IMG/VR virus record: IMGVR_UViG_3300006318_000005
Span: 1-30,074 of that record
From: a virus
DNA length: 30,074 bases
Direction: 5' to 3' (one strand)
The position numbers and the translations under genes were made by a program. Of the stretch, positions 1 to 29,835 are shown one piece after another (the stretch's first letter is position 1; each line of letters opens with the position of its first letter). The notes under the pieces were generated by a model. The model worked only from the letters and a program-made list of their open reading frames with translations. It was not told the origin of the DNA and did no database searches.

Positions 1-54
1 ACCCTGTAGAGATTCAACCGCCCCTCCCCTTCTGAGACTGTGCGACAATGTTTC

Positions 55-204
55 ATGGCGTCCGACCTGCCAGACCCGCGACACGATCTTGCACTACTCG
101 AAGCCCATTCCGCCGCGATCAAGACGCTCCTGCTCCGCGTCGCACAACTGGAACAACGGATCGCCGGACTGGAATTTGATTCCGATCAAACCACGCGCCA
201 CTAG
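55..204 (+). CDS. small coiled-coil protein (49 aa), tentative
   Basis: A short rightward reading frame starts at ATG 55 and ends at TAG 202-204. The product has a strong heptad-like pattern (LALLEAH, IKTLLLRV, LEQRIAGLEF), so a single coiled-coil helix is likely. No function can be assigned. It has no good ribosome binding site and lies antisense to a competing leftward frame (94-225), so at most one of the two is probably real. If the genome is circular, a promoter-like pair at 30008-30037 on the same strand would lie about 90 bases upstream, which favours this frame slightly. Confidence 0.38.
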   Translation: MASDLPDPRHDLALLEAHSAAIKTLLLRVAQLEQRIAGLEFDSDQTTRH

Positions 205-225
205 TCCCCCGTCAAACTTTGTCAT
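94..225 (-). CDS. hypothetical protein (43 aa) after queE, tentative
   Basis: The leftward frame begins at an ATG that overlaps the queE stop as ATGA (225-222), the junction style used throughout this operon, and ends at 94. The product is 43 aa, mixed in character, with one cysteine and no membrane segment; I recognise no family. The overlap is the only positive evidence. It is antisense to the coiled-coil frame at 55-204. Confidence 0.33.
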   Translation of the reverse strand: MTKFDGGLVARGLIGIKFQSGDPLFQLCDAEQERLDRGGMGFE

Positions 226-824
226 GGAATGTTCCATCCTAAGTGGGCTTGTGATGACATCTGCACACCGGGTGTTCGCAGACAAAAGTCAATACACCGC
301 TGTTGCTCGTCAGTGGACCCGGCAAGTGGTTGCACCCATCTATAGGCGAAGTTCGTCGCCCACATCGCGTGGTCTTCCACGTCTGACCACGTCAATGACC
401 CCAACCGTGGAATCATTTTCACTTCGGATCCGTATAATCCCTCTATTCTCCTATGTGGACTTACCGACCTCCACGACAGCCCGTCAAAATGCTGTTGACC
501 GTTATGACCCGACTCTGCCAGTGCTACACGCCACGGCTGTAGTGCGTCGATTAGCGGTTGCAGGTCGTGATCCGTCGGTTCGCCACCCGTAATCCACACC
601 CACGGTTTCGTTGAATGAAACACTGCCGGTGCCGCAGACCGCACCCGAATTGCCAGCCCAGCTAACGACACCTGTTCTGCCACACTGTAATCAGTGTCGC
701 ATTCAGGACACCTGACGCTGCACCCTGCTAACCGCAGAAACACCATCGGTTGACCGCTGTGTGCGCCTTCGCCATTGATTGTCCAATAGACCCCGTTCGG
801 TGCAAGTGGATACGTGTCAGACAA
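222..824 (-). CDS. queE: 7-carboxy-7-deazaguanine synthase (radical SAM), QueE-like
   Basis: QueE converts 6-carboxytetrahydropterin to 7-carboxy-7-deazaguanine, the committed step toward preQ0. The protein has the family N-terminus (YPLAPNG, then TINGEG), a CX3CX2C cluster at C35, C39 and C42 for the 4Fe-4S centre, as in QueE, and the WITGGEPTDH S-adenosylmethionine-binding motif. A frame open from 902 would overlap dpdA by 86 bases. I chose TTG 824, which gives a normal-length 200-aa protein starting just before the conserved YPLAPNG and an 8-base overlap. It lies directly after the dpdA-like gene, so its product is probably meant for DNA rather than tRNA. FolE, QueD and QueC are not in the window and would have to come from the host. 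The gene has far fewer GATC sites than its neighbours, a sign of recent transfer. Confidence 0.9.
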   Translation of the reverse strand: MSDTYPLAPNGVYWTINGEGAHSGQPMVFLRLAGCSVRCPECDTDYSVAEQVSLAGLAIRVRSAAPAVFHSTKPWVWITGGEPTDHDLQPLIDALQPWRVALAESGHNGQQHFDGLSWRSVSPHRRIEGLYGSEVKMIPRLGSLTWSDVEDHAMWATNFAYRWVQPLAGSTDEQQRCIDFCLRTPGVQMSSQAHLGWNIP

Positions 825-1416
825 AGTGCATCCGTTTCTGCTGTTGCCAGCGGTGAAGTATTCGCATTCCTTCGTCGGGATACCAAGAAAAGGTGCTGCC
901 ATCCACGCTGTGGCAACCGATGTCAGATGCGTAGTTGTATCGTCGCAACGAATTCACGCGACCCATATGAACCCACAACCCCATTGCCCGTGCATACCCA
1001 CTGAACGATGCGGTGCGTCTGGACAGCTTGAACGTCGTGCTGCCACCAATGAACACGCTGTCAATGTCGGTCCAGGGAATATCGTGATGGGTCACCCCAT
1101 CCTGCAACACCACCGCCACTGGCAGGTGATGCGCCTTGATCACAGGTTGCCAGGTGTCAAACAACGTGCGTGTTTCGGTCCAGTTTTCTAACACGTCCGG
1201 TGCAGTCACAAACACACAACCGGTACGCCCACGCACCGTTTCCAGCATTCGCAGATAGGGTTCTGGTTTGAACCCGTGAAAGCAATCGTTGTCACACGCC
1301 CACGTGCCGGTCGTCAGTCCTTCAAACCCACCCGTGCTTGGTGTCAACAGATGCCCACAGCCAGGTTGTTCGTCACGGATTCCACTTCGCAGCACGATGG
1401 GTGTGTCAGTCACCAT
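817..1416 (-). CDS. dpdA: DpdA-like DNA 7-deazaguanine transglycosylase
   Basis: This 199-aa protein matches the short phage group of TGT-like transglycosylases that swap guanine in DNA for a 7-deazaguanine base. Recognisable blocks are GCVFVTAPDVL with an aspartate, LPVAVVLQDG, a DSVFIGGSTTFKLS glycine-rich strand, WVHMGRVNS, and GCHSVDGST followed by YPDEG. This is the usual order in phage DpdA proteins, which are much shorter than tRNA-guanine transglycosylases. The ATG at 1416 overlaps the methyltransferase stop by 7 bases. Queuosine tRNA modification is less likely because the protein lacks a visible Cys/His zinc site of the tRNA enzyme. GATC is nearly absent from the gene, unlike the flanking genes. 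Confidence 0.82.
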   Translation of the reverse strand: MVTDTPIVLRSGIRDEQPGCGHLLTPSTGGFEGLTTGTWACDNDCFHGFKPEPYLRMLETVRGRTGCVFVTAPDVLENWTETRTLFDTWQPVIKAHHLPVAVVLQDGVTHHDIPWTDIDSVFIGGSTTFKLSRRTASFSGYARAMGLWVHMGRVNSLRRYNYASDIGCHSVDGSTFSWYPDEGMRILHRWQQQKRMHFV

Positions 1417-1883
1417 TGGTTCCTAATGAATCGTCGGTGGTGTGTTGTCAACACCGCGATCAGTGATGGGAACGGCGCGGACGTTGCCGCCCCATTAAAC
1501 TTTAACCGCCCTGGCACTAGCCGCAATTCCACCCCTGGTCGAGCCTGATGTTGTGTTTGATCCCAGATCCACTGATGAAACCACTTCGTATCCGTTCGCG
1601 CAGGCAGTAAGAACACCGCCACGTCCGATCGTCCGGCGTCTATTTCCTCGCGTGCTTTTTTTAACCAGTCACCAACTCGCCGCCCATACGGCGGATTACA
1701 CCAGATCCGCCCGCGCCATTCCTGCGTTAGTCCGTCAGTCTCCCGATTGAAATACCGATCACATTTTCTGTTCTCATAGGTCGCCGCCACGTCTAACGTA
1801 AACCCAAACGCCCGATCTAATTCTCGAAACAGATCGTCCGGCGTCGCCCATTCCTCAGACGCCGAACTAAACATCGCCGCCAT
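1410..1883 (-). CDS. phage DNA N6-adenine methyltransferase (Dam family)
   Basis: This predicted 157-aa S-adenosylmethionine-dependent adenine-N6 methyltransferase belongs to the phage Dam group. It opens with the family pattern FSSASEEWATPDDLFRELD, then a FTLDVAAT motif, RYFNRETDGL, and the catalytic NPPY at residues 63-66, followed by a VFLLPARTDTKWFH block. ATG 1883 is preceded by AGGGG at 5 bases. A GTG at 1904 would overlap the previous stop as GTGA and is the alternative start, adding 7 residues. The target sequence cannot be read from the protein, but the genome is saturated with GATC, so GATC is a reasonable guess. It probably protects phage DNA or marks replicated DNA. Confidence 0.88.
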   Translation of the reverse strand: MAAMFSSASEEWATPDDLFRELDRAFGFTLDVAATYENRKCDRYFNRETDGLTQEWRGRIWCNPPYGRRVGDWLKKAREEIDAGRSDVAVFLLPARTDTKWFHQWIWDQTQHQARPGVELRLVPGRLKFNGAATSAPFPSLIAVLTTHHRRFIRNQW

Positions 1884-1900
1884 GCGTGCCCCTGGTTTTG

Positions 1901-2542
1901 TCACGCGACCACCCGCCGCCGATCGTCGCCGGTCATGCCGACCACGTCGCACCATCCTACTAACCGCGACATGAGCCGATCGTCCTGCATTTGATCACCA
2001 ACGGCGGACGGCGTCAGGTTACTGGTCCAGATCGTCCGGCGTCCCGCGTCCCGCCGCTGTTCCGCTAATGCCAATAAGGTCCGCCGCGTGTAATCGGTTG
2101 CCGTGTCCCGTTCTGCCCCCAAATCATCTAAGACCAATAGCGGAGCCGTCACCACCGGCCCCATATATTCCCGATCCGATCCCCCGCTTGGCTGCAACTG
2201 GACGAGTAACCACGGCACCCGCCGGAAGGTTCCCGCGCGCCGTTTGCAGAAGTGATCATTTAAAATAGAACACGCCAGCCGGGTTTTCCCGGTCCCGATC
2301 GATCCGCACAGATACAGATCGCGCCCCGTTGGGTTCTCAATATTCCGTAACATCCGCTTTGCTGCCGCCAACGCGTGCCGATAGGTTCCGCCCCAATTAT
2401 CCAGACTGGCCGATCGAAACTCTGCTGGCACACCATCCCCGAACCGGTGCGCTTTCACCCAACAATCGCACCGCTGTACCCGCGCGACGCCCTCGCCGTC
2501 CACCACGTCGATCCAGCCTGTGCCCCTGCAGGAGTTACACAC
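1901..2542 (-). CDS. DnaC-like AAA+ helicase loader
   Basis: This 213-aa AAA+ ATPase resembles DnaC/IstB-type helicase loaders, which place the replicative helicase at the phage origin. An N-terminal zinc-ribbon-like segment (CNSC then CDCW) precedes the ATPase. Walker A is GSIGTGKT at residues 80-87, Walker B is LLVLDDLG with aspartates at about 139-140, and IWTSNL is a sensor-1-like strand. GTG 2542 overlaps the replication initiator by 8 bases and has GGGGG just upstream. The open frame extends to 2605, but the longer start would give a 71-base overlap. Its position directly after the initiator gene is standard for phage replication modules. Confidence 0.85.
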   Translation of the reverse strand: MCNSCRGTGWIDVVDGEGVARVQRCDCWVKAHRFGDGVPAEFRSASLDNWGGTYRHALAAAKRMLRNIENPTGRDLYLCGSIGTGKTRLACSILNDHFCKRRAGTFRRVPWLLVQLQPSGGSDREYMGPVVTAPLLVLDDLGAERDTATDYTRRTLLALAEQRRDAGRRTIWTSNLTPSAVGDQMQDDRLMSRLVGWCDVVGMTGDDRRRVVA

Positions 2543-3362
2543 GATCGCCCCCGTAATCGACCGCCGTGTCGTAGTCCCGCCGCGCCGCTGTTGTGACCGT
2601 GCCACCCGCGACCGCCACCGGACGCGGCGTTCGCGCCTGTTCCAAATACTTTTGGAACGTAGTCTCGTCCCGGATTAACCAGTCGAGGGTCGCCGTCCAC
2701 TGTGGATGTTTCCCCGTGCCAGGAGCCCGACACCACGCCTGGGAATTGAGATAGGCGATCACGATCTGCCAATCGCCGACGTCCGGATAGGCTATTAACC
2801 GTTTCCGCAATAACGCCGCCCGCGACGCCGTGACCTTTTGCACCTGCGGGATCGGACTGGTGACAGTCTCATTCCAGACTGCGACCACCGCCGCTGGCGG
2901 GATCCGTTCCGCTTCGTTCCCTTCCGTTCCCTTATATTCCTTTCCCTTATATTCCTTTCCCTTCCCCGCGTCACTTGTACGCACGACCGCGACGTCCCCG
3001 TCCCCTAACCGCGACGTCCCCGTCGCACTCTGCGACAGATCCGACGCCGGAAACACCGACGCGGGTTCCTCTTTACGTGGTCGCTGATGCACCAGAAACC
3101 GCGGAATCGCGATCAGTTTCACCCCGTCCACCTCGTACCGGTCGATAAATCCCGCCGCGGCCAGCTCGTCTAACACCTGGCTAAAATCCAAATCATCATA
3201 GGGTAGAATCTGAGCCTTCAACCGCTTAGGCCGATCTGCCGCCCGTCCCTCGCGATCAACACAACAGAACAATCCAATGAACGCCAACCGCGCGATCGGG
3301 TTCAGTTCTGCTAACTCTTCATGGAGAAAGAGATCCGGTTTAATCGTTCGAATCCGTGGCAC
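2535..3362 (-). CDS. phage replication initiator with winged helix and DnaD-like C-terminus
   Basis: This 275-aa protein begins with a pattern typical of phage replication initiators (RIRTIKPDLFLHEELAEL, RLAFIGLFCCVDREGR, RPKRLKAQILPYD), a winged-helix DNA-binding domain in residues 1-95. A charged linker at about 120-155 contains KGKEYKGKEYKG. The C-terminal part (VAVWNE, WQIVIAYLNS, WTATLDWLIRDETTFQKYLE) resembles the DnaD-like tail that contacts the helicase loader, encoded just downstream. GTG 3362 overlaps the exonuclease stop by 23 bases and has GGGG upstream. The linker DNA carries two 17-bp direct repeats and an AT-rich tandem repeat, a possible origin inside the gene as in the lambda O gene. 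Confidence 0.82.
   Translation of the reverse strand: MPRIRTIKPDLFLHEELAELNPIARLAFIGLFCCVDREGRAADRPKRLKAQILPYDDLDFSQVLDELAAAGFIDRYEVDGVKLIAIPRFLVHQRPRKEEPASVFPASDLSQSATGTSRLGDGDVAVVRTSDAGKGKEYKGKEYKGTEGNEAERIPPAAVVAVWNETVTSPIPQVQKVTASRAALLRKRLIAYPDVGDWQIVIAYLNSQAWCRAPGTGKHPQWTATLDWLIRDETTFQKYLEQARTPRPVAVAGGTVTTAARRDYDTAVDYGGDRV
2929..3024. repeat. candidate replication origin: iteron pair plus AT-rich tandem repeat
   Basis: Within the linker of the initiator gene, two exact 17-bp direct repeats (core CGCGACGTCCCCGTC) lie at 2986-3002 and 3008-3024, spaced 22 bases apart. Next to them are two exact tandem copies of the AT-rich 15-mer CCCTTATATTCCTTT at 2929-2943 and 2944-2958. Iterons beside an AT-rich tract inside the initiator gene is the arrangement of the lambda origin. 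The repeats may instead only reflect a low-complexity protein linker. Confidence 0.4.
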
Positions 3363-4095
3363 GTCTGCCCCCTTTTTGTTGTCGCCGCAATGGTGGCACC
3401 ACGCCCACCGCCCGCGCGAGTTTCAACGTGATCACCACGTCACGCTTGACGTGCTTTTTGACCGCGGACCAATCATTCGCCAGGACTGCCGCGGGAACGT
3501 CCGCCCCCGTAATCGGATCCGCTGGACCAGTCAACGCCCGCCGGTCCGCGTGGAAACTTAACGATCGCCGTTGCAAAATACCGCCGAACGATAACGCGAT
3601 CATCAGATCCACCACGTCGCCACGCGTGCGATACGGGTGGAGATCAAACGATCGCGCGACGGGCACGCCAAGATAGTCCGACCGCCGCAAAAGATACGGC
3701 AGATCAAACGCTACGCAGTTATAGCCAACCAGGATCGCCCGCGCCGCCACCGTCCACCACTTCCGAAGTAAATACCGTTCCTGGCGTTCTGTTTTCGCAA
3801 TCGCTGATAACGTCCGCCCAGTCGCCTCATCCCACCACCCGATCGCCACAATCCGCCCTAGATCCGGATCCAGCGCGGCCCGATCGAGTAGTTCTTGACG
3901 TTTTCGATCCACATACGCCGCGATCTTGACCGGATCGCGATACGACCCCGGCGCGGACACCGCGGGCACCCACGCCGCCGCGCGATCATGCGCGGCTGTT
4001 TCGATATCAAACACCACGCGCCGCGACACGCCCGCCGCGTCTAATCGATCCGCCACTTGGCGCGCGCCGATCGTCCGGACTTTCTGTTGTGACAT
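3340..4095 (-). CDS. DnaQ-like DEDDh 3'-5' exonuclease
   Basis: This predicted RNase-H-fold 3'-5' exonuclease shows three classic motifs: Exo I VVFDIET (D30, E32), Exo II GYNCVAFDLPYLL (D130) and Exo III HVKRD (H214, D218), giving a DEDDh set. The wording around Exo II resembles stand-alone PolB-related exonucleases found in phages. It likely trims or proofreads during replication or recombination. ATG 4095 was chosen; an ATG at 4104 in frame is equally possible, and a GTG at 4056 would reduce the overlap with the HNH gene. No polymerase gene is seen, so it probably works with the host replisome. Confidence 0.8.
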   Translation of the reverse strand: MSQQKVRTIGARQVADRLDAAGVSRRVVFDIETAAHDRAAAWVPAVSAPGSYRDPVKIAAYVDRKRQELLDRAALDPDLGRIVAIGWWDEATGRTLSAIAKTERQERYLLRKWWTVAARAILVGYNCVAFDLPYLLRRSDYLGVPVARSFDLHPYRTRGDVVDLMIALSFGGILQRRSLSFHADRRALTGPADPITGADVPAAVLANDWSAVKKHVKRDVVITLKLARAVGVVPPLRRQQKGGRRATDSND

Positions 4096-4418
4096 TGCAC
4101 ACATAGACTTTGATGATTCCGCGGATCCTCAAACTTCCGCCGGTTCTGTTTGTGATCCTGAATATGATCCACCACTGTCGCCAGTCGCCGCCGTCCCTGT
4201 GCCCGACATAAGACACAGAACGGATGATCCCGCAGATATTCCGCGCGGTATTTCTCCCACGCCCTCGTATACCCACGTTTGCGCGCACTTGGCCGCACCG
4301 CGTCCGCTTGTTTTCGCGCGGCCCGCTGACACGGATCGCAATACCCCGACAGCCGCGACGTTAATCGCACGCACCCGATCCGCCGACACGGACGTTTCGG
4401 TCGCGCTAACCCCTTCAC
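4041..4418 (-). CDS. HNH endonuclease with zinc knuckle
   Basis: This 125-aa protein has a C-terminal HNH domain: VVDHIQDHK (D84, H85), EDPRNHQSLC (N101) and CVQCHNRK (H110). Four cysteines at 68, 71, 106 and 109 form a structural zinc site. The N-terminus has extra Cys pairs (C11, C16, C27, C30), possibly a second zinc ribbon. GTG 4418 overlaps the previous stop as GTGA. Phage HNH proteins of this size often help terminase packaging, but those lie next to terminase genes. Here the gene sits in the early operon, so a role in recombination or host DNA breakdown, or a free-standing homing enzyme, is also possible. Confidence 0.85.
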   Translation of the reverse strand: MKGLARPKRPCRRIGCVRLTSRLSGYCDPCQRAARKQADAVRPSARKRGYTRAWEKYRAEYLRDHPFCVLCRAQGRRRLATVVDHIQDHKQNRRKFEDPRNHQSLCVQCHNRKSGRSARAKWRID

Positions 4419-4585
4419 CGATCCGCGTCATCCGTCCGGATCCGCACGTCGAACCGTCCCGACACCACCACCAGCGCGCCCGCGGCGAACGCCAACCCTA
4501 ACCCGATCAGGCTCCAGGGCTCGACATACACCACCGCCGCCGCGGTACACAAACACGCCGACACGTTGATCGCTAGTTGTAACAT
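4415..4585 (-). CDS. small membrane protein (56 aa, two TM segments)
   Basis: The start ATG 4585 lies 13 bases inside the end of the exported HNH gene, and the stop overlaps the next gene as GTGA, so the frame is fixed by both junctions. The product begins MLQLAINVSACLC and has two hydrophobic stretches, about residues 3-20 and 24-42, with a charged tail (RFDVRIRTDDADR). No family is recognised. It belongs to a run of tiny membrane proteins around an exported nuclease and may be a partner, anchor or immunity factor for it; this is inference from position alone. Confidence 0.65.
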   Translation of the reverse strand: MLQLAINVSACLCTAAAVVYVEPWSLIGLGLAFAAGALVVVSGRFDVRIRTDDADR

Positions 4586-5136
4586 TCGCACCCTTTCGAG
4601 GCATTGACGATCGCGTTAACTTCCGCCGGATCCGCCGTGAGTTGATAGGCGTGCTTAATGCCCCGCCACCGGTCAAGATATCCACAAACGTCGCGCCCTG
4701 GCATCCACGCCGCTGGATCGCGCGCGCCCTTGGACCGATTCACCGATCGCCCGGTCGGACTAAGGTTCCGGACGTCATTGGCAAACAGTCGCCGCCCCGC
4801 GTCCGTCCATTGGTCCGCGCCCGATCGCCACGCCTCCCGTAACGGCACGATATGATCAATATCCAACACCGACGCATCCGACACCGTGTCCCCGGTATAT
4901 GGATCGAGCCATAGCCCCAGGACAACCCGGCATCCCGTGGCGTCAAACGTGACCGGCACCGCGGACGACGCGATCAACACTTCCGCGCGCGTGTTCTTGC
5001 AATCAAAATCCTGATCCGTCCACCCGCCAAACCGATCGCGATCGTAAGTCGTTCTCGATCCACTTGTCGCCGCCACCACAATCGCGCCCGCGACCGCCAC
5101 GCCAAGCCCGACGCCGATTCCGTTGGTCCGCGTCAC
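4573..5136 (-). CDS. membrane-anchored or exported HNH nuclease (DUF1524/GmrSD-C-like)
   Basis: This 187-aa protein resembles a family of secreted HNH nucleases. A hydrophobic N-terminal segment (about residues 7-24) should act as a signal peptide or anchor. The mature part has YDRDRFGGW (31-39), C46 before NTRAEVL, C69, DPYTG (78-82), the active-site block DIDHIVPLREAW with D94 and H95, RSGADQW, LFANDVRNL (N120, N124), NRSKG (N133, K136) and W144. Cysteines 46, 69 and 151 fit an oxidising compartment. GTG 5136 is fixed by a GTGA overlap with the preceding small membrane gene. Secreted bacterial homologues act outside the cytoplasm. A copy in a phage early operon suggests attack on DNA at the cell surface or periplasm, for example incoming phage DNA; that role is inferred. 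Confidence 0.8.
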   Translation of the reverse strand: MTRTNGIGVGLGVAVAGAIVVAATSGSRTTYDRDRFGGWTDQDFDCKNTRAEVLIASSAVPVTFDATGCRVVLGLWLDPYTGDTVSDASVLDIDHIVPLREAWRSGADQWTDAGRRLFANDVRNLSPTGRSVNRSKGARDPAAWMPGRDVCGYLDRWRGIKHAYQLTADPAEVNAIVNASKGCECYN

Positions 5137-5264
5137 GGCGACACCGCCGCCGTAATCCACCACCGAATCAGCCCAATACAGATCCCCATCACCGCCACCC
5201 AAATCGCCCCACAGACGCCGAGCCAATACAGAAACGTCCAGAACTCCTGCAGCCGCCGATCCAT
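5133..5264 (-). CDS. small membrane protein (43 aa)
   Basis: ATG 5264 begins 4 bases after the previous stop, and the stop overlaps the HNH gene as GTGA. The product starts MDRRLQEFWTFLYWLG and continues through a long hydrophobic stretch (about residues 8-34: VCGAIWVAVMGICIGLI), ending RWWITAAVSP. One long or two short membrane helices are likely. It is tryptophan-rich. No family is recognised. Tight coupling to the nuclease downstream suggests the two act together. Confidence 0.62.
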   Translation of the reverse strand: MDRRLQEFWTFLYWLGVCGAIWVAVMGICIGLIRWWITAAVSP

Positions 5265-5268
5265 GTGC

Positions 5269-5349
5269 TTAAAACCCCGCCAACAACACCACCGCCACCA
5301 CTAGCACCACCACAAAGACCCAGATCGCGACAACGTACACCCCGATCAC
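5269..5349 (-). CDS. tiny single-pass membrane peptide (26 aa)
   Basis: GTG 5349 overlaps the stop of the preceding gene as GTGA, and TAA lies 4 bases before the next ATG. Nearly the whole product is one hydrophobic helix (VYVVAIWVFVVVLVVAVVLLAGF) with no charged residue. At 26 aa it is below usual annotation cut-offs, but both junctions follow the operon's pattern exactly. It could be a holin-like or exclusion peptide, or a membrane partner of the exported nuclease; no function can be read from it. Confidence 0.55.
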   Translation of the reverse strand: MIGVYVVAIWVFVVVLVVAVVLLAGF

Positions 5350-5618
5350 AATTCCGCCAACCGATCCGCAATCACGATCCGCCGTCGCACTGTCCGCGCG
5401 ATCTTCGCCGGTGCGTTCGTCGCCCGACATAACCGCCCGTCGTCAATGCGCGCCATTGTCCAGGCGTAATAGGCCCGCGCGTAGGTTTCTTTGACCAGAT
5501 CAACCGCTGGATCACCGGGCACTGTGACCCGCGATCGCCGCCGTTGATCGAACCCATCATCCGGCGCGGCCAACATTGCGGTATACACCGCAACCCGTTC
5601 TTGATCCGCCTCCGTCAT
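5346..5618 (-). CDS. hypothetical early protein (90 aa)
   Basis: ATG 5618 overlaps the previous stop as ATGA; the long upstream extension of the open frame is spurious. The product (MTEADQERVAVYTAM and so on) is charged and soluble, with a likely helical core (VDLVKETYARAYYAWTMARIDDGRL) and a basic C-terminal region (KIARTVRRRIVIADRLAEL). No family is recognised. It lies between two small membrane-protein genes in the early operon. Confidence 0.65.
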   Translation of the reverse strand: MTEADQERVAVYTAMLAAPDDGFDQRRRSRVTVPGDPAVDLVKETYARAYYAWTMARIDDGRLCRATNAPAKIARTVRRRIVIADRLAEL

Positions 5619-5785
5619 TTTTTCGCGTTGGGCGTGACCAACTTCCGCTGGACAAACGCCACGATCGTCGCCACCACGGACACCGTGATCGCCACTTCCT
5701 CCGCGTCCAGCTCCAACCCAAACGCCGCGGCCAATGCGACCGCGACCGAGATCAACGCCCCGCCCAACACCGGTTCTTTTCGCAT
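5615..5785 (-). CDS. small membrane protein (56 aa), holin-like architecture
   Basis: ATG 5785 has a strong GGAGGG nine bases upstream, among the best ribosome binding sites in the window, and marks the first gene of the small-protein cluster. The product has two hydrophobic stretches (GGALISVAVALAAAFGL and VAITVSVVATIVAFV) separated by an acidic turn (ELDAEE), ending in a basic tail (QRKLVTPNAKK). This hairpin resembles small phage holin-like proteins, but the lysis genes are in the late operon, so another membrane role is likely. It follows a roughly 230-base gap that holds a dispersed repeat. Confidence 0.7.
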   Translation of the reverse strand: MRKEPVLGGALISVAVALAAAFGLELDAEEVAITVSVVATIVAFVQRKLVTPNAKK

Positions 5786-5844
5786 GATCTGATCCCTCCA
5801 ACGCTTTAACGCCCACAACACCCGGACGATCGATCGTGGCAACG

Positions 5845-6030
5845 CTAAAACTTGCCAGGGATCCGCCGCTGGACTAGGTCGCCGCCGCCGTCGTCGCCGT
5901 CCCACTTCTGCCCCGTTTTCGATATTTTCGACCCGGTCTCGATCGTTTTGACCGCGTCACGTTGCCTGTACGGCCACCCCATCGATCGCCGCAACCCCTC
6001 GCACCCCGACGATCTAGAACAATCGCCCAT
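5845..6030 (-). CDS. possible 61-aa ORF across the dispersed repeat
   Basis: In the gap between the winged-helix gene and the small membrane gene, a frame runs from ATG 6030 to a stop at 5845 and translates the repeat as GWPYRQRDAVKTIETG. The same frame stays open across the repeat copies at 13448 and 17135 (GWPYSGRDAVEISKSG and GWPYSERDAVGIVENG). It may be a decayed or very small gene, or chance. No strong ribosome binding site is seen. Confidence 0.2.
   Translation of the reverse strand: MGDCSRSSGCEGLRRSMGWPYRQRDAVKTIETGSKISKTGQKWDGDDGGGDLVQRRIPGKF
5906..6007. repeat. dispersed intergenic repeat, copy 1
   Basis: This copy starts TTCTGCCCCGTTTTCGA, contains GACCGCGTCACGTT, CTGTACGGCCA and GATCGCCGCAACCCCTCGCA, and ends CCCC. 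It fills the gap upstream of the small-membrane-protein cluster. It matches copies at 13448-13530 and 17135-17216, with about 18 extra bases in its middle. Each full copy lies just upstream of a leftward gene. Confidence 0.85.
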
Positions 6031-6385
6031 CCGCCGCCGCCGTCTGCACCGGTCCAAAGGATCGATATTCCCAGGTCGCGCCCGGTTCCGCCCCGGTCCG
6101 CCGTCGCCGTCGCCGAATGTCATAGCCGCCGAACCGCGGTTTCCGCAAATCACGCACCCGCGCCGACACACTCGCTTCTGAGGCGTGCCCCAACTCGCGC
6201 GCAATTTCTCGCACCGTCACCCACGCGCCGCGCAGCATGATCGCGCGCACCTGGTCGAATTGGCGCGACAACCGATCACCGTCAAGAGCCGGATCAAAAC
6301 TCTCGCCGTCAAAGGCCCGCACCGGTCGCCCGTCAAACCGAAACGCCACGCCGTTGACTATGCGCGCCCTGGTATCTATAGACAC
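6014..6385 (-). CDS. winged-helix DNA-binding protein
   Basis: This 123-aa protein contains a probable winged helix: FDQVRAIMLRGAWVTVREIARELGHASEASVSARVRDLRKPRFGGYDIRRRR, with a helix-turn-helix in the middle and an arginine-rich wing. The wording matches small phage helix-turn-helix proteins that resemble replication or regulatory factors. GTG 6385 gives a 10-base overlap with the resolvase gene; the frame is open to an ATG at 6421, which would overlap by 46. It may regulate the early operon or bind replication DNA. Confidence 0.65.
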   Translation of the reverse strand: MSIDTRARIVNGVAFRFDGRPVRAFDGESFDPALDGDRLSRQFDQVRAIMLRGAWVTVREIARELGHASEASVSARVRDLRKPRFGGYDIRRRRRRTGAEPGATWEYRSFGPVQTAAADGRLF

Positions 6386-6654
6386 TCGATCACCGGATCC
6401 GATCGTTGTTGGATTCGCCAATATTCTTTAGACACGTTCGCCGCCGTCTTGATCTGTTGGATCGCCTCCCGGTCCGCCGCAGACAACCGCGCCGATCCGC
6501 TTTTCACCTGGATCAACCGCACGCCCACCGACGACACCGCGACCAGGTCAAACGGCCCGTGGCTCCCCCGCGATTCGACCACTAGATAGCCCGCCGTTTC
6601 CAAAATGGCCCGACAGCGTTTCTCGTAATACGTCCCGCGCCGGTAATTACTCAC
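6376..6654 (-). CDS. Holliday junction resolvase-like PD-(D/E)XK nuclease
   Basis: The 92-aa protein has the small archaeal Hjc-like layout: GTYYEKRCRAILETAGY with E11 in the first helix, then SRGSHGPFDLVAV with D36, and RLIQVKSG with Q49 and K51. The usual E-x-K is Q-x-K here, a known variation in this fold. It would resolve branched recombination or replication intermediates, or trim branches before packaging. It belongs with the SSB-like and possible annealing proteins upstream in the same operon. Confidence 0.75.
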   Translation of the reverse strand: MSNYRRGTYYEKRCRAILETAGYLVVESRGSHGPFDLVAVSSVGVRLIQVKSGSARLSAADREAIQQIKTAANVSKEYWRIQQRSDPVIECL

Positions 6655-6657
6655 ACG

Positions 6658-6963
6658 TCACGATCCCGGTACTCGCGCCTTTTTCGGAATCCCCTTTTGA
6701 GACTTGCGCGGCTTTTTTCGCACTGGCCGCGCGTGTCGGCAGTCATCACACCCGCCGCGACAGGTTTTTCCATGCTCTCGATCCCACGCTTCAAACCAGC
6801 TCCGCGCGTTTTGACTACTGGCAATGGCGCATGGATTCGCCGCCCGCGGAAACCCGCGCCGCGCCGCCGACCGCCCAAACGCCCGCGCCCGCTCCGGCGT
6901 CATCACGCCCAACAATGTTTTCCCGCGCCGCTTGGCGACCGGCAGCGACATCCGCGACGCCAT
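6658..6963 (-). CDS. small basic protein with Rmf/CrpP-like motif
   Basis: The 101-aa product is very basic. Its middle (ARAFGRSAARRGFPRAANPC, then SWFEAWDREHG) matches the short pattern of ribosome modulation factor-like and CrpP-like proteins common in phages and plasmids: a G-x-x-AA-x-x-G helix, NPC/NPY, then W-x-x-x-W. A CRGGCDDC cluster (three Cys) and a lysine-rich tail follow. ATG 6963 overlaps the SSB-like stop as TAATG. A role in binding ribosomes or nucleic acid is possible but unproven. Confidence 0.5.
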   Translation of the reverse strand: MASRMSLPVAKRRGKTLLGVMTPERARAFGRSAARRGFPRAANPCAIASSQNARSWFEAWDREHGKTCRGGCDDCRHARPVRKKPRKSQKGIPKKARVPGS

Positions 6964-7319
6964 TAGAACGGAATGTCATCATCAGTTAATTCCGCGGGTT
7001 TTGGCGGATGTGCGACCACGGGAAACACCCGGATCCCTTTGCCGCCCGCGCGCGGATAATCCACCACGACCGCTTCCAGCGCGATCGACACCCCTTGCCA
7101 ATCGTTCGAATCATCACTCCCGGCGATCTCTGCAATCGCCCGCGCGTTGGTCTGATTTAATACCAACAATTTCTTTCCGTTGCGAAACGATACGATCGGC
7201 TTTTCGTCGCCGTTGTCGAAGGTTTCGATCGCCACGTCCGCGATCTCCACTTTGATCCGCTTGCCCTGCAAATCGTCAGAATGGAGCCACTTACTTGGAA
7301 ACATTTGATCCAGCTTCAC
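6963..7319 (-). CDS. SSB-like phage protein with acidic C-terminal tip
   Basis: This 118-aa protein starts with the family pattern MKLDQMFPSKWLHSDDLQGKRIKVEIADV, continues with PIVSFRNGKKLLVLNQTNARAIAEI and WQGVSIALE, and reads as a single beta-rich OB-like domain. The C-terminus, ELTDDDIPF, closely mimics the DDDIPF tip by which bacterial SSB recruits repair and replication partners. I infer single-stranded DNA binding in phage recombination or replication. GTG 7319 overlaps the previous stop as GTGA. Confidence 0.72.
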   Translation of the reverse strand: MKLDQMFPSKWLHSDDLQGKRIKVEIADVAIETFDNGDEKPIVSFRNGKKLLVLNQTNARAIAEIAGSDDSNDWQGVSIALEAVVVDYPRAGGKGIRVFPVVAHPPKPAELTDDDIPF

Positions 7320-7666
7320 GCGTCCGCCTTTCTATTCATCCCTGTTTGCGCCTGGGCAAAACTGGATCGCGCCGATTCGATCGCCGCGTCGAAACTCCGC
7401 CCCGCGCCCGCCCATTCGAGCGTTAACACTTCGCTGGTGTCTAAATTGATCAACGTCATCCGGTGCGTCGTAATCCACTCGCCCGCCGCCGCGTCCACTT
7501 TCACAATTTCATCGATCCAGACGGTCCGTAGATCGCCTAACTCGTTATGGAAAAACCCGGCAATTTGTCCTTGGTGTCGTTCGTGCCCACCCGCGCCGGA
7601 TCGAACACGACGGCCCACCGTCGCCAGGACTTCGATCACCGACAACGCAACCCGTCGATCGGTCAT
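7316..7666 (-). CDS. possible ERF-like annealing protein (short)
   Basis: The 116-aa protein has an ERF-reminiscent C-terminal half: TTHRMTLINLDTSEVLTLEWAGAGRSFDAAIESARSSFAQAQTG, similar to the strand followed by G-x-G-x-D-x-x-A-I-x-x-A-x-T helix of ERF single-strand annealing proteins. It is much shorter than typical ERF proteins and lacks a clear N-terminal half. The neighbouring SSB-like and resolvase genes make an annealing role plausible. ATG 7666 overlaps the previous stop as ATGA. Confidence 0.4.
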   Translation of the reverse strand: MTDRRVALSVIEVLATVGRRVRSGAGGHERHQGQIAGFFHNELGDLRTVWIDEIVKVDAAAGEWITTHRMTLINLDTSEVLTLEWAGAGRSFDAAIESARSSFAQAQTGMNRKADA

Positions 7667-8061
7667 TCCTGCGATCCAAATAACCGCGACGCTTGATCAG
7701 TTGTTAAACATTCGCCGGTCAATACATGGATCCAGGCGTCAACAATTGTGTGCGCGTGGTCCCCTGGCGTTTTGATCTGATCATGCGCGCAGATCTCCGC
7801 CGCATTCTCCGCGGTCCGGTACGCTTCCGCGCGCCACGTTTGCCGGTTGAAATGCAACGCCAACGCCGCCGATCGGAAATAGTGATCGCGCGCATCGTCC
7901 GGCAGATTCTCCCAGGCTGTCGGTTTTGTAAACTGCAGCAAATTAACCTGATCGATGATCGAAATATGTTTCGCGAGATCTTCCACCACGCGCCGATCAA
8001 CCACTTCCGCGGCGTCGCCATGCGGCCACAGTTTCGGCAGTTGTCGAACTAGCCGCGTCAT
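7663..8061 (-). CDS. hypothetical early protein (132 aa)
   Basis: ATG 8061 overlaps the excisionase-like stop as ATGA, so the 11-codon extension to 8094 is probably not used. The product is soluble and mostly helical, with no cysteine-rich or membrane segment except C-residues in EICAHD and TGECLTTD. I recognise no family. Its place between the excisionase-like gene and recombination genes suggests an early DNA-metabolism or host-takeover role. Confidence 0.7.
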   Translation of the reverse strand: MTRLVRQLPKLWPHGDAAEVVDRRVVEDLAKHISIIDQVNLLQFTKPTAWENLPDDARDHYFRSAALALHFNRQTWRAEAYRTAENAAEICAHDQIKTPGDHAHTIVDAWIHVLTGECLTTDQASRLFGSQE

Positions 8062-8261
8062 AACTTCCGCCGCCCGATCTGGTTCTCGATCCACAACGTC
8101 AACCGGGACTCCGGCACCCGGATCGCGTGCCCCACCCGAATCGACGGGATCGCGTCCTGTTTAATGAGCCGATACGCCTGGGACCGCGTAATCCGCAGAA
8201 TCGCCGCCGTTTCCGGAACCGTAAACAACCGCGCCGGTTCGTTGATCGGGTTATTTCTCAC
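8058..8261 (-). CDS. xis: excisionase-like HTH protein (MerR/HTH_17 fold)
   Basis: This 67-aa protein has a compact winged helix: LFTVPETAAILRITRSQAYRLIKQDAIPSIRVGHAIRVPESRLTLWI, the pattern of excisionase and helix_turn_helix_17 proteins. GTG 8261 overlaps the Cro-like stop as GTGA. As second gene of the leftward early operon it could act as Xis on attP, where four CGCAACG boxes lie at exact 10-bp spacing (10879-10915). A purely regulatory role is the alternative; another protein of this fold is encoded at 27436-27651. Confidence 0.72.
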   Translation of the reverse strand: MRNNPINEPARLFTVPETAAILRITRSQAYRLIKQDAIPSIRVGHAIRVPESRLTLWIENQIGRRKL

Positions 8262-8521
8262 GCGCGCGCCTGATGATCCGGAAACAGGGAATCCGCCGAC
8301 GTCGCCAACACCCGCGCGATCCGTTCCCGCGTTGATCGATCCGGACGCAGTCGCCCGATCTCGATCCGGCTGATCTGGTATTGCTCCAAATCACACACGA
8401 TCGCTAATTGTTTTTGTGTCAGCCCGCGCCGCTTGCGAACTTGGCGAATCTCACAACTAGCTATCGATTGACCGGTTTTGATCTCTTTTTCCGGGCGTGG
8501 CGCAAACACTCCGCTATCCAT
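8258..8521 (-). CDS. Cro-like XRE-family repressor
   Basis: The 87-aa protein has an XRE helix-turn-helix (EIRQVRKRRGLTQKQLAIVCDLEQYQISRIEIGRLRPDRSTRERIARVL) after a 17-residue N-terminal extension. It is the first gene of the leftward early operon, opposite the CI-like gene, so a Cro role is likely. The extension (VFAPRPEKEIKTG) matches the C-terminus of the CI-like protein (VFTPRPEKDIKAG). The promoter -10 box ends only 8 bases before the ATG, so the transcript is probably leaderless or nearly so. Confidence 0.82.
   Translation of the reverse strand: MDSGVFAPRPEKEIKTGQSIASCEIRQVRKRRGLTQKQLAIVCDLEQYQISRIEIGRLRPDRSTRERIARVLATSADSLFPDHQARA
8471..8512 (-). repeat. inverted copy of the repressor tag segment (with 8879-8920)
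   Basis: These 42 bases, read leftward, match 34 of 42 bases at 8879-8920 read rightward, with a 17-base identical core (CCACGCCCGGAAAAAGA). In the Cro-like gene they encode the N-terminal tag; in the CI-like gene they encode the last 14 residues. Confidence 0.85.
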
Positions 8522-8529
8522 AACCGCGG

Positions 8530-8558
8530 ATTATAGGCGCGCATATTTTCGGAGTAAA
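8530..8558 (-). promoter_or_regulatory. early leftward promoter
   Basis: Read leftward, TTTACT (8558-8553) and a perfect TATAAT (8535-8530) are separated by 17 bases. The -10 box ends 8 bases before the Cro-like ATG, leaving almost no leader. A perfect 6-bp inverted repeat (8568-8582) sits 9 bases upstream of the -35 box. Confidence 0.75.
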
Positions 8559-8567
8559 CAACTAAAT

Positions 8568-8582
8568 ATCTGTCTAACAGAT
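8568..8582. promoter_or_regulatory. operator-like palindrome in the immunity region
   Basis: ATCTGT, a 3-base spacer CTA, then ACAGAT form a perfect inverted repeat between the divergent repressor genes. Its position between both promoters suits binding by the Cro-like and CI-like XRE proteins. Flanking CTAAA and TTTTTAG extend the symmetry loosely. Confidence 0.6.
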
Positions 8583-8604
8583 CTTTTTAGTGTTTGCATA
8601 TTCT

Positions 8605-8638
8605 TTGCTTGGTTTCCGACAGTCTTTATAGGTAAAAT
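8605..8638 (+). promoter_or_regulatory. candidate rightward repressor promoter
   Basis: TTGCTT (8605-8610) and TATAGG (8627-8632) are 16 bases apart; TAAAAT at 8633-8638 is an alternative -10 box. The ATG at 8648 follows with no Shine-Dalgarno sequence, so the repressor mRNA is probably leaderless, as from lambda PRM. The exact boxes are uncertain. Confidence 0.45.
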
Positions 8639-8647
8639 ACGCCCTAG

Positions 8648-8923
8648 ATGCTTATCGAGTGGCACGTCGGCGAAGTCATTAGAAAATTACGCCAACATCA
8701 TAGGCTTACCATTTCAGACCTGGCGCGCGATTCCGGCGTGTCGGTTTCATCAATTCAAGCCATTGAAGCCGGACGGAAATTTAAAACGACCACGCTGGAA
8801 AAACTGGCGGACACTTTCGATACCACGATCAACGAGTTATTCCGCCAGGTTCCACCCACAATGCACATCCCCGATCGCGAAGTGTTCACCCCACGCCCGG
8901 AAAAAGACATCAAGGCCGGATAG
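8648..8923 (+). CDS. CI-like XRE-family repressor (short)
   Basis: The 91-aa protein has an N-terminal XRE helix-turn-helix (VGEVIRKLRQHHRLTISDLARDSGVSVSSIQAIEAGRKFKTTTLEKLADTFDTTINELF) and a short C-terminal tail ending VFTPRPEKDIKAG. It has no protease-like or dimerisation domain, so SOS autocleavage as in lambda CI is not expected. It is the first rightward gene of the immunity region and precedes the PAS-type regulator. The tail is nearly the same peptide as the N-terminus of the opposed Cro-like protein. Confidence 0.82.
   Translation: MLIEWHVGEVIRKLRQHHRLTISDLARDSGVSVSSIQAIEAGRKFKTTTLEKLADTFDTTINELFRQVPPTMHIPDREVFTPRPEKDIKAG
8879..8920 (+). repeat. repressor tag segment, CI-like copy
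   Basis: This is the rightward member of the inverted pair described at 8471-8512. It encodes the last 14 residues of the CI-like protein and lies just before AGGAG, the ribosome binding site of the next HTH gene. Confidence 0.85.
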
Positions 8924-8934
8924 GAGAAAATAAA

Positions 8935-9660: not shown

Positions 9661-9663
9661 CCC

Positions 9664-10833: not shown

Positions 10834-10842
10834 CCGCAAAAA

Positions 10843-10864
10843 GTAAACCAATTGTAAACCAATT
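10843..10864 (+). repeat. left integrase arm-site pair
   Basis: Two exact tandem copies of GTAAACCAATT (10843-10853, 10854-10864) begin 10 bases after the integrase stop. An identical pair lies at 11104-11125, beyond the attP core, in the same orientation. Confidence 0.8.
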
Positions 10865-11096: not shown

Positions 11097-11103
11097 GGGA
11101 AAA

Positions 11104-11125
11104 GTAAACCAATTGTAAACCAATT
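11104..11125 (+). repeat. right integrase arm-site pair
   Basis: Two tandem copies of GTAAACCAATT, identical to those at 10843-10864, lie 52 bases beyond the attP core. Confidence 0.8.
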
Positions 11126-11211: not shown

Positions 11212-11283
11212 ATCTGGTACCGCTTTCTATTTCTGCTATAACTGCACTAACTAAAAGACTTATCGGCTCGACTAATGCCGGCG
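11212..11283. repeat. 72-bp direct repeat, copy at the end of the late operon
   Basis: This segment matches 29881-29952 in the same orientation with 2 mismatches in 72 bases. It lies 6 bases beyond the stop of the last late gene; the other copy lies 45 bases before the first late gene. It has no strong hairpin. Read leftward, one frame is open in both copies (PALVxPISxLVSAVIAEIESGTR). Confidence 0.95.
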
Positions 11284-13436: not shown

Positions 13437-13447
13437 CGATCCGCCTG

Positions 13448-13530
13448 TTCTGCCCCACTTTTGGAAATTTCGACCGCGTCACGTCCGCTGTACGGCCATC
13501 CAACCGATCGCCGCAACCCCTGGCACCCCG
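13448..13530. repeat. dispersed intergenic repeat, copy 2
   Basis: This copy fills the gap between the holin-like gene and the endolysin. It runs from TTCTGCCCC through GACCGCGTCACGT and GCTGTACGGCCATCCAACCG to CACCCCG. It is most like the copy at 17135-17216, and its TTCTGCCCC half resembles the coding copy at 25411-25444. Confidence 0.88.
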
Positions 13531-17117: not shown

Positions 17118-17134
17118 TCGCTCCGATCCGTCTC

Positions 17135-24041: not shown

Positions 24042-24131
24042 AAATAAACCGCGCCGCCGCGCCAGGTGCAGCCCGCGCCCCCGCGTCCGGGTTCTGGCTA
24101 CACGTCTACCTAGCGCGGCGACCGTGGCAAT

Positions 24132-27651: not shown

Positions 27652-29357
27652 AGCGTCAACAACCCGCGATCTTCATACACCGACCGCACCGTCGCCGCGG
27701 CGTCCGCGTCCGCATACCGCGCTAACTTGATCGCCAGAATCGACGCGATCACGCCGTCTATATGGCCGCGCGCCCTGGCCTTTGATGGAAAAATGTTGCC
27801 GTTGGCGTCTACTTTAACCACGGCATTGCCCACCATCCACGTTAAAACCGGACACGATCCCGCGTCGATCAGCTCTTCCAGGATTAACGCCTCAAACTCT
27901 TTTGACGGATCGGACAACTGGCCGACCGTTTGCGGAATCTCGACAACCCGCCCGTCGCCGATCTCCCGCTGCAGATCCGCGATTAAACTGGCCGCATTCC
28001 AGGGATCCAGCCCGATCAACTGGACGTCATAGTCCCGACACGCCTGGAACAAATACTCCCGGATATACTGCTGGTCAATGCGCGCGCCTGGGATCCGCTG
28101 GAGATCCCGCGACCGGATCCACTCCTGATAGGGTGCCCGCGCCGCATGTTCCCGCGCGTCCAAATCCGCGTCCGGCGTCCAAAACTTGGGCAGAATGCGC
28201 CACTTGGGATCCGCGTCCGTTGGCTTGAACACGATCGCCGCCGCCGCGAGATCAATTTTCGACGCCAGATCAACGCCGATACAACACGATCGGCCCGCGA
28301 ACGTCGCCGGAGACAACCGGCGATCTGACTGCCCCGCGCGCCACCGTTCCAGGTTTAACCAGGGATCGCCGCCCTCCACCCATTGGTTCAGCCGTTTGGT
28401 CCGAAACATCGCCAACGCCGACGGGACCGCCTTGGCTTGTTTCGCTAGTCGCCGCATGTCCTCCGGATTCACCGACACGCCCCACATGGGGTTCGCTTTT
28501 TTCCAGGTTCGCACCAGGAACGGGTTATCTTCCGGATCCGCGTGGGCGATAAACCCAAACAACCGATCGTCCGATAACGTCCCGTCAAGAATTTGCCGGA
28601 CGTAATCCCGAAACACCGCACACGGCGACAGGAGATCGACGCCCGCCGTTGTAATCGCAAACAACAACGGTTCCCGCCGCGCGCCTTGCGCGGTTTCGAT
28701 CACGTCCACCAGTCCGCGCGTTTTGTGCGCGTGGTATTCATCAATCACCGCCGCCGACGGGTTCAACCCGTCTAACGAGTTGTAGTCGCTGGACAAGGGT
28801 TCGATCTTCGACCGCGTATCCAACCGCGCGAGATTTGAGACAAACACGCGGATCCGTTTTTTTAGCATGGCGTCCTGTTGAACGATCGCCTTGCAATCGT
28901 CAAACACAATCCGCGCCTGGTCCCGCTTGACGCCGCACGCGTACCCCTCTGCGCCCGCTTCCCCGGTGAAAAAGGTGGTATAGAGTAGGACGCCCGCCGC
29001 GAGAAAACTTTTCCCGTTCTTCCGTGGCACTTCGATATACGCCGATCGAAACCGTCGAAACCCGGTTGCCGGATCAATCCAGCCGTACAGATTCGCGAGA
29101 ATAAATTGCTGGAACGGTTCCAACTGCAGCCGCGATCCCGACCATTGGCCCTTGTAATGCTTTAAGGTGGAGAAAAACAACAACGCGCGATCCGCGCGGT
29201 CGCGATCGAAGACAAACGGGAACGCGTCGTCCGTCCGGGTCCGCTTTAAATCTTCCAGGAACCGAATCCCCGCGCGACGGTGCAACGCCCCAACGGACGC
29301 CGTCGGTTTTGCAATCTTTCGCGCGTACCGAACAACCGGATCCGGCTTAGTGGGCAC
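27648..29357 (-). CDS. terL: terminase large subunit
   Basis: The 569-aa protein has an N-terminal ATPase (LQLEPFQQFILANLYGW, Walker A VPRKNGKS at about 110-117, Walker B AAVIDEYH, then FAITTAG) and a C-terminal nuclease (IGVDLASKIDLAAAAIV, IGLDPWNAASLI, HIDGVIASILAI with acidic residues). It packages DNA into proheads. GTG 29357 has GGGAG 8 bases upstream and gives an 11-base overlap with terS; the open frame to 29420 is unlikely. Confidence 0.95.
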   Translation of the reverse strand: MPTKPDPVVRYARKIAKPTASVGALHRRAGIRFLEDLKRTRTDDAFPFVFDRDRADRALLFFSTLKHYKGQWSGSRLQLEPFQQFILANLYGWIDPATGFRRFRSAYIEVPRKNGKSFLAAGVLLYTTFFTGEAGAEGYACGVKRDQARIVFDDCKAIVQQDAMLKKRIRVFVSNLARLDTRSKIEPLSSDYNSLDGLNPSAAVIDEYHAHKTRGLVDVIETAQGARREPLLFAITTAGVDLLSPCAVFRDYVRQILDGTLSDDRLFGFIAHADPEDNPFLVRTWKKANPMWGVSVNPEDMRRLAKQAKAVPSALAMFRTKRLNQWVEGGDPWLNLERWRAGQSDRRLSPATFAGRSCCIGVDLASKIDLAAAAIVFKPTDADPKWRILPKFWTPDADLDAREHAARAPYQEWIRSRDLQRIPGARIDQQYIREYLFQACRDYDVQLIGLDPWNAASLIADLQREIGDGRVVEIPQTVGQLSDPSKEFEALILEELIDAGSCPVLTWMVGNAVVKVDANGNIFPSKARARGHIDGVIASILAIKLARYADADAAATVRSVYEDRGLLTL

Positions 29358-29835
29358 GCGCCGACACTCCCGGCGACGTCCGATCAAACTCCGCGAACGG
29401 ATCCGCATCCTCCGCGACATCGTCCACCCGCACCGCGCGACTTTGCGCCGTCGGCGTGAGCCCCATTTCCGCCAACGCTTTCACCACTTGCGACCAGGCA
29501 CGATCCGCAATCGACAACCACGCGGACTTTTGTTCGAATCCGTTAGGCGTCACCTGGACCGCGCCGTCCGATCGGACCCGTCGTTCCGCCTGGACCCACC
29601 GCGACCACGCGACGCAATACGTAGCAAAGATCGGACCATACACCACGCCGATCCGCTGTTCCTTCACCAGCTCCGCGCCGAACGTGTACCAGTGATCCTT
29701 GGCGTCCGCGTCTAAAAACTCCGGCGGATCCGGTAATCCAACCCGGACCACCGGTTCCCGCTTGTTAAATGGTCGCTTCCCCGCGTTTCCGCCAAGTTTG
29801 CGATCGATGGTGGCTTTTGGTCGTCGTCCTGGCAT
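29347..29835 (-). CDS. terS: terminase small subunit, P27 family
   Basis: The 162-aa protein starts PGRRPKATIDRKLGGNAGKRPFNKREP, a hallmark of P27-type small terminases, followed by DAKDHWYTFGAELVKEQRI, YCVAWSRWVQAERRV, EQKSAWLSIADRAWSQVVKALAEMGLTP and a disordered acidic end. It recognises the packaging site. It is the first late gene, with a hairpin and the 72-bp repeat just upstream. Confidence 0.92.
   Translation of the reverse strand: MPGRRPKATIDRKLGGNAGKRPFNKREPVVRVGLPDPPEFLDADAKDHWYTFGAELVKEQRIGVVYGPIFATYCVAWSRWVQAERRVRSDGAVQVTPNGFEQKSAWLSIADRAWSQVVKALAEMGLTPTAQSRAVRVDDVAEDADPFAEFDRTSPGVSARAH

What the first reader, a model, noticed from the sequence alone, without database searches (positions are those of the whole stretch)
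222..1416. queE-dpdA pair sits in a GATC-poor island inside a GATC-saturated phage
Seen: in 241-1500 I count 4 GATC in 1260 bases, while samples elsewhere give 16 in 660 (9961-10620), 13 in 420 (3601-4020) and 11 in 600 (24121-24720). The low-GATC zone coincides with the two 7-deazaguanine genes, and GATC becomes dense again within the methyltransferase gene. Inference: the pair was added recently and has not yet taken on the phage's composition. Only QueE and DpdA are present, so the host would have to supply the other preQ0 steps.
Basis: partly seen in the sequence, partly recalled or inferred. Interest (0 to 1): 0.78.

Follow-up and report, generated by a model that had tools for sequence, protein, structure and literature searches.

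The report
Borrowed two-gene phage DNA-modification cassette
A small temperate phage carries a foreign-looking two-gene cassette, probably taken from another phage, that likely swaps guanine in its DNA for a modified base and depends on the infected bacterium for the remaining steps.

Summary
The island is broader than GATC: CpG, codon choice and GATC-masked dinucleotides also differ. Foreign origin is well supported: an otherwise different, GATC-normal phage contig (L002) shares DNA with the window only from dpdA's start to queE's stop (75.6% over 1193 bp), and both genes evolve under purifying selection (dN/dS 0.13). A second assembly closes the window to within 41 bases of a circle, so the absence of QueC and QueD is real; the host must supply those steps. 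The short DpdA is predicted to be a TIM barrel whose best PDB match is tRNA-guanine transglycosylase. Of 50 records with this enzyme, 25 carry a 7-deazaguanine supply gene (QueE, QueD, QueC or YhhQ), within 1 kb in 24; YhhQ never co-occurs with synthesis genes. No empty site was found, so 'recent' rests on unameliorated composition. Chemistry, host and protection are inferred.

The parts
817..1416 (-). dpdA-like gene: short (199 aa) putative DNA-guanine transglycosylase, family phrog_15826
   Evidence: phrog_15826 5e-42; D42, P73, D74, Q105, G124, G125, K130, H150, G152, R153, D172 invariant in 60 of 60 sequences; AlphaFold2 model pLDDT 89.6, pTM 0.87; best PDB match tRNA-guanine transglycosylase
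222..824 (-). queE-like gene: radical SAM 7-carboxy-7-deazaguanine synthase homologue, TTG start overlapping the dpdA stop (ORF is open up to ATG at 902)
   Evidence: phrog_2076 1e-16; PDB QueE 4njg 7.8e-14 full length; top 5 Foldseek matches of its model are all QueE; start position
222..1416 (-). compositional island = the whole two-gene cassette; boundaries match the DNA homology with L002 (window 222-1412)
1410..1955 (-). dam: phage N6-adenine DNA methyltransferase directly upstream; its stop overlaps the dpdA start by 7 bases; GATC use is that of the rest of the phage
   Evidence: PF05869 9e-25; GATC used at 9 of 11 possible positions; overlap
29347..29835 (-). terS: terminase small subunit, next gene downstream of queE across the contig join
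   Evidence: homology to L236/L237 TerS, 68-72%; join shown by L004

Best explanation
The segment is a horizontally acquired, probably translationally coupled two-gene DNA-modification cassette (dpdA-like then queE) seated between the phage's dam gene and terS. Proposed working: host FolE and QueD make CPH4; [quoted passage not shown] host QueC turns that into preQ0 (or CDG is used directly); the short DpdA exchanges guanine in phage DNA for this base, and the altered DNA resists host restriction enzymes. Shown here: both genes and their overlapping layout, their foreign composition, exact-boundary sharing with another phage, purifying selection, a near-closed genome with no match to the other pathway genes tested, a transglycosylase-type fold with conserved residues, and a family-wide link to 7-deazaguanine supply genes. 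Inferred: the reaction, the inserted base, the host's contribution and the protection.
For: Cassette transfer: DNA homology to L002 begins and ends with the two genes, 75.6% over 1193 bp, nothing else shared at the DNA level; composition tests. Function kept: dN/dS 0.13 for both genes. Transglycosylase: model pLDDT 89.6; Foldseek PDB rank 1 is TGT 3hfy, E 5.8e-5; the viral library includes queuine tRNA-ribosyltransferases of Bella96 (2.5e-4) and Sonali (2.0e-3); profile comparison with three standard phage DpdAs: probability 81.9, E 1.1e-5, aligned over the D42 and D74 motifs. Pathway link: 25 of 50 records with the enzyme carry QueE, QueD, QueC or YhhQ, 24 of 25 within 1 kb counting the window; in 43 control records 0 carried YhhQ and 0 QueE. 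QueE: cluster cysteines and the residues corresponding to E. coli E15, R27 and T40 kept (residue roles from passages of PMC11142719). Precedents: 9g DpdA alone put dPreQ0 in plasmid DNA in E. coli (Table 1 passage of PMC6884629); phage MED16 with dam plus a lone dpdA has dADG DNA (passages of PMC8306585).
Against: No modified nucleoside has been measured. The host is unknown, so its QueD and QueC are assumed. Sequence similarity to standard DpdA is partial, and there is none to E. coli TGT by hhalign. VIA-align places TGT (Z 13.9) level with pyruvate kinase (Z 14.4), i.e. a common TIM barrel. Arthrobacter phage Sonali and Vibrio phage R29Z carry both this short enzyme and a standard DpdA, so the short one may have a different role. 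The cassette's QueE departs where the 7 other homologues aligned agree or nearly agree: N for Q13 (7 of 7 have Q), SPH for SPK (7 of 7), HL for HK (4 of the 6 that reach that position); it scores far below NCBIfam's QueE cut-offs. Mycobacteriophage Orion, with DpdA only, had no modification where the host lacks the pathway (PMC6884629 section 11).
Confidence: 0.7

Rival explanations
1. Queuosine booster: QueE raises host CDG/preQ0 to enrich queuosine in host tRNA and translation; the DpdA-like protein acts elsewhere or on tRNA.
For: Hutinet et al. propose this for phages with pathway genes but no DpdA (PMC6884629 section 8).
Against: queE overlaps a transglycosylase-like gene and the two are shared as an exact unit; the same enzyme family also pairs with YhhQ, QueC or QueD.
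Confidence: 0.1
2. QueE as host-division blocker: the phage protein arrests septation as overproduced E. coli QueE does.
For: E. coli QueE co-localises with FtsZ and blocks division (abstract and passages of PMC11142719).
Against: That paper finds region E45-W67 needed for it, and that region missing or nearly so in QueEs that do not filament; the phage protein is about 18 residues shorter between the T40 position and GGEP and aligns with gaps there. The link to dpdA is left unexplained.
Confidence: 0.03
3. Composition by selection, not by ancestry: the two genes are old residents kept low in GATC and CpG, or their protein sequences forbid GATC.
For: dpdA offers only 7 GATC-able positions; several dpdA-like genes elsewhere have low GATC.
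Against: At positions that could hold GATC the pair uses 3 of 21 against 455 of 667; a queE-dpdA pair in the GATC-rich phage L125 uses 16 of 31 and matches its genome, O/E 3.79 against 3.70; CpG and masked dinucleotides differ too; L002 carries the pair in different surroundings.
Confidence: 0.07
4. The short DpdA-like enzyme is not a base-exchange enzyme but an accessory (for instance a remover or editor of modified bases, or a different TIM-barrel hydrolase).
For: It co-occurs with a standard DpdA in Sonali and R29Z; TIM-barrel Z-scores do not single out TGT; weak PDB sequence hits include GP-PDE proteins.
Against: Foldseek's best hit and most of its listed top hits are TGT; motif order matches standard DpdA in profile comparison; it is linked to preQ0 supply genes in half of the records examined.
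Confidence: 0.1

Closest known systems
dpdA-queE pair of IMG/VR contig 3300046467_001799 (L002)
   Same: Same gene order, 72% and 84% protein identity, same TTG overlap.
   Different: Different phage: no other shared DNA; pair sits before a C5-cytosine methyltransferase (PF00145) instead of after dam; GATC-normal genome.
Standard phage DpdA with full preQ0 pathway (CAjan, 9g, Rosebush; Hutinet 2019)
   Same: Transglycosylase-type enzyme plus QueE; expected 7-deazaguanine DNA.
   Different: Those encode FolE, QueD, QueE, QueC; CAjan's DpdA is 306 aa and phrog_887. Here only QueE and a 199 aa enzyme of another family.
Singleton DpdA phages (Salmonella 7-11, Orion; Pantoea MED16)
   Same: Host must supply precursor; MED16 also has a dam gene and dADG DNA.
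   Different: They carry no pathway gene; this phage adds QueE.
SEA-PHAGES 'DpdA-like tRNA-guanine transglycosylase' (Sonali gp81, Majeke, Aoka)
   Same: Same family, 33-37% identity in the alignment.
   Different: None of the three has an adjacent queE; Sonali has the full pathway and a second DpdA, Aoka a YhhQ-like gene nearby.

Membership tests
Phage DpdA (DNA-guanine transglycosylase) | TIM-barrel fold of the TGT superfamily | tested here: met
   Model pLDDT 89.6; Foldseek best PDB hit TGT 5.8e-5; Z shared with other TIM barrels
Phage DpdA (DNA-guanine transglycosylase) | Catalytic aspartates in the TGT order (roles recalled, not from a call) | tested here: met
   D42, D74, D172 invariant in 60 of 60; D42 and D74 motifs align to standard DpdA; D172 lies outside that alignment
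Phage DpdA (DNA-guanine transglycosylase) | Sequence similarity to characterised DpdA | tested here: inconclusive
   hhalign probability 81.9 over 90 columns; PHROG differs from phrog_887/7068
Phage DpdA (DNA-guanine transglycosylase) | Inserts a 7-deazaguanine base into DNA | not testable with these tools
   needs LC-MS or enzyme assay
QueE (CDG synthase) | Radical SAM cluster motif and QueE fold | tested here: met
   C-x3-C-x2-C, GGEP; 4njg 7.8e-14 over the full length; top five Foldseek hits QueE although the model is weak (pLDDT 66)
QueE (CDG synthase) | Residues named for substrate and Mg binding in E. coli QueE (Q13, E15, R27, T40) | tested here: inconclusive
   E15, R27, T40 kept, Q13 is N; Q13A had negligible effect in E. 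coli (passage)
NCBIfam QueE equivalogs (TIGR04508, TIGR04322) | Score above curated cut-off | tested here: not met
   64.6 and 52.6 bits against 240 and 200; hence 'QueE-like homologue'
Full phage preQ0 pathway group (Hutinet group 2) | QueD and QueC encoded beside QueE and DpdA | tested here: not met
   No PF01242 or PF06508 match in the window; tblastn with CAjan/R29Z QueC, QueD, FolE found nothing credible

The most novel reading that the evidence does not exclude
The short DpdA-like family (phrog_15826, listed as unknown function) is a plug-in DNA transglycosylase: each phage couples it to only the one supply step its host lacks or limits (import by YhhQ, or QueD, QueE or QueC), so the neighbour gene predicts the gap in the host's pathway. 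In this phage and L002 the step is an unusual QueE with altered pocket residues, which might even deliver a different base such as CDG.
Probability: 0.3. Interest if true: 0.68.

Novelty: new variant of a known kind. Interest (0 to 1): 0.52.

Why it matters
It shows a DNA-hypermodification function shared between phages as an exact two-gene unit, caught before its composition has changed. It also suggests that a large phage enzyme family of unlisted function (476 relatives confirmed in one viral scan) is a minimal transglycosylase that borrows the host's queuosine pathway and often carries one helper gene. That can be tested by LC-MS on existing isolates such as Majeke, Aoka and ReqiPine5.

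Tried and rejected
Host identification: a terminase scan of bacterial genomes gave 60 relatives, best 41% (Paenibacillus), so the host stays unknown; no tRNA in the window. Empty-site test: dam, repO and terS scans gave few relatives; L238/L239 (TerL 64%) end 44-47 bases beyond terS, so the site is not covered. A search for further copies of the cassette's QueE returned only L002's contig. DpdA-like was absent from 11 kin records searched, but several are short fragments and the tool notes that an empty answer shows nothing; 1 of 43 control records had it. E. coli TGT did not align by hhalign, and the PDB profile search with the DpdA-like alignment gave nothing above chance. The QueE model is weak, so only its fold match is used. 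A weak QueE match in G008 (15 bits, 72-aa frame) was dropped from the count. A chemical link between the cassette and GATC was considered and dropped: CpG and CGCG deviate as strongly. Cui et al. 2023 (further DpdA subfamilies, dCDG) is not held; what I know of it is recall, and how this family maps to their DpdA3/4 was not tested. Paper searches bearing on novelty; none of the listings or passages I saw describes the one-partner pattern, but subscription papers are not held. Hutinet et al. report no correlation of YhhQ with any phage group.

Selection of records: the 50 records were the window plus 49 records behind the 80 loci, mostly contigs of 15 kb or more; some redundant or shorter ones were left out by me. 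G003 and G004 are near-identical, so independent cases are fewer. The 43 control records were 41 terminase relatives and L232, L233; one (G013) is also in the first set and was left out of the Fisher test. FolE was sought only by tblastn, not by family search. FolE, QueC and QueD were not searched in the controls.

Full report
What was claimed and whether it is there. The window holds 545 GATC in 30,074 bases, 5.1 times the base-composition expectation. The segment 222-1416 holds 3; across all windows of that size the mean is 21.9, and the lowest beyond position 1500 is 12. Protein content explains part of this, but at positions where the encoded proteins allow GATC the pair uses 3 of 21 and the 34 other ORFs tested use 455 of 667 (Fisher p = 8e-7). 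Apart from the pair, only two small genes fall to 0.40 or lower: 8648-8923 (2 of 8) and 14071-14448 (4 of 10).

The island is wider than GATC. With every GATC masked, dinucleotide distance of the pair from the rest is 0.238; the highest of 274 control windows is 0.135. CpG O/E is 1.03 against 1.57, lowest elsewhere 1.37; CGCG is 1.7 against 18.5 per kb. Codon choice of both genes fits L002's genes better than the window's (differences -0.065 and -0.049), while 31 of 34 window genes prefer their own genome. The three exceptions are the plus-strand genes 8648-8923, 8935-9660 and 9664-10833. The fit to L002 is not perfect: the pair's dinucleotide distance to the rest of L002 is 0.191, lower than to its own genome but above every control window's distance to the rest of its own genome.

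The genes. dpdA-like (817-1416) matches phrog_15826 and no Pfam or NCBIfam model. Its start overlaps the dam stop by 7 bases, and queE most likely starts at TTG 824, overlapping the dpdA stop by 8. The L002 pair has the same overlap. Order on the minus strand: dam, dpdA-like, queE, then terS.

Completeness. L004, another assembly of the same phage (99.5%), begins with the reverse of window bases 39-1, then 41 new bases, then continues from base 30074 inwards. The window therefore lacks about 41 bases of a circular map, and missing pathway genes are not hidden beyond its left end. QueC, QueD and YhhQ families give no match in it, and tblastn with CAjan and R29Z enzymes finds only queE.

Transfer. 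L002 is the closest relative found: DpdA 72%, QueE 84% protein identity, DNA 75.6% over window 222-1412, and nothing else shared at the DNA level. At the protein level the two phages also share a distant metallophosphoesterase (39%) and a weak repO match (27%), so they may be distantly related. L002 has 5.4 GATC/kb. A terminase relative of the window phage (L005, 78% protein identity), GATC-rich at 16.2/kb, carries the same metagenome number as L002 (3300046467), so both phage types appear to occur in one sample. dN/dS is 0.13 for both genes; dS is 1.77 (dpdA) and 0.80 (queE), so the two copies are not recent sisters. As a counter-control, the queE-dpdA pair of L125, a different GATC-rich phage, shows its genome's GATC level (O/E 3.79 against 3.70), so such genes need not be GATC-poor.

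What the short DpdA is. Sixty family members keep D42, P73, D74, Q105, G124, G125, K130, H150, G152, R153 and D172 without exception. The model is confident. Foldseek's first PDB match is TGT 3hfy (E 5.8e-5), with many TGT entries and some EAL-domain proteins behind it. VIA-align ranks pyruvate kinases (Z 14.4) and TGT (Z 13.9) as ties, so the fold alone does not give the function. Profile comparison to three standard DpdAs gives probability 81.9, with two aspartate motifs in register.

Family-wide context. Among 50 records (the window and 49 others), QueE occurs in 8, QueC in 6, QueD in 5, YhhQ in 13 (12 above cut-off) and at least one in 25. The nearest such gene is within 1 kb in 23 of 24 other records, and the window's is contiguous. 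The exception is Sonali. Eight records have a single synthesis gene (QueE in four, two of them near-identical; QueC in three; QueD in one), 13 have YhhQ alone, one has QueD plus QueE, three have QueE, QueD and QueC, and 25 have none. YhhQ and synthesis genes never co-occur (Fisher p = 0.022). Of 43 control phage records, none has YhhQ or QueE (p = 1.7e-4 and 0.007). This links the family to 7-deazaguanine supply but is not proof of the reaction.

QueE. Cluster cysteines, E15, R27 and T40 equivalents and the C-terminal NIP shared with Burkholderia QueE are kept. Asn replaces Gln13, and two other motif positions (SPK, HK) differ, in both cassette copies. Q13A was tolerated in E. coli (passage of PMC11142719). 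The filamentation insertion is missing.

Literature seen. PMC6884629: abstract, sections 8-11 and passages. PMC8306585, PMC11142719, PMC5347944, PMC11888242, PMC8651126 and PMC12783734: passages only. Others: search listings only. Cui et al. 2023: recalled, not held.

Verdict. The host-dependent DNA-modification function is the best reading at about 0.7. No chemistry, no host and no empty site are shown.

Noticed in passing
L092 (IMGVR_UViG_3300049432_000035), 1-10492: Next-closest DpdA-like phage has 0 GATC in 10,492 bases at 58% GC, where about 39-43 are expected: the opposite extreme to the window.
   Followed up: partly
window 1-30074: GGCC (81, about 137 by Markov model) is under-represented in a phage with 545 GATC; may reflect host restriction. 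AGCT is rare too (25), but the Markov expectation is 22.
   Followed up: no
window 5946-6008, 13436-13529, 17123-17216, 25399-25444: Dispersed repeats of about 46-94 bp, 85-88% alike.
   Followed up: no
window 11212-11283 and 29881-29952: 97% identical 72-bp repeat; L004 lacks about 50 bases at the second copy. Purpose unknown.
   Followed up: no
window 10839-10864 and 11100-11125: Identical 26-bp A+T-rich repeat just downstream of the integrase, a candidate part of the attachment site.
   Followed up: no
L084/L243 (Sonali) and L089 (Vibrio phage R29Z): Two transglycosylase-like genes in one phage: the short family and a standard DpdA.
   Followed up: partly
L097, L099, L113, L126, L130, L131, L137: The dpdA-like gene often lies close to the terminase genes, as it does here.
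   Followed up: no
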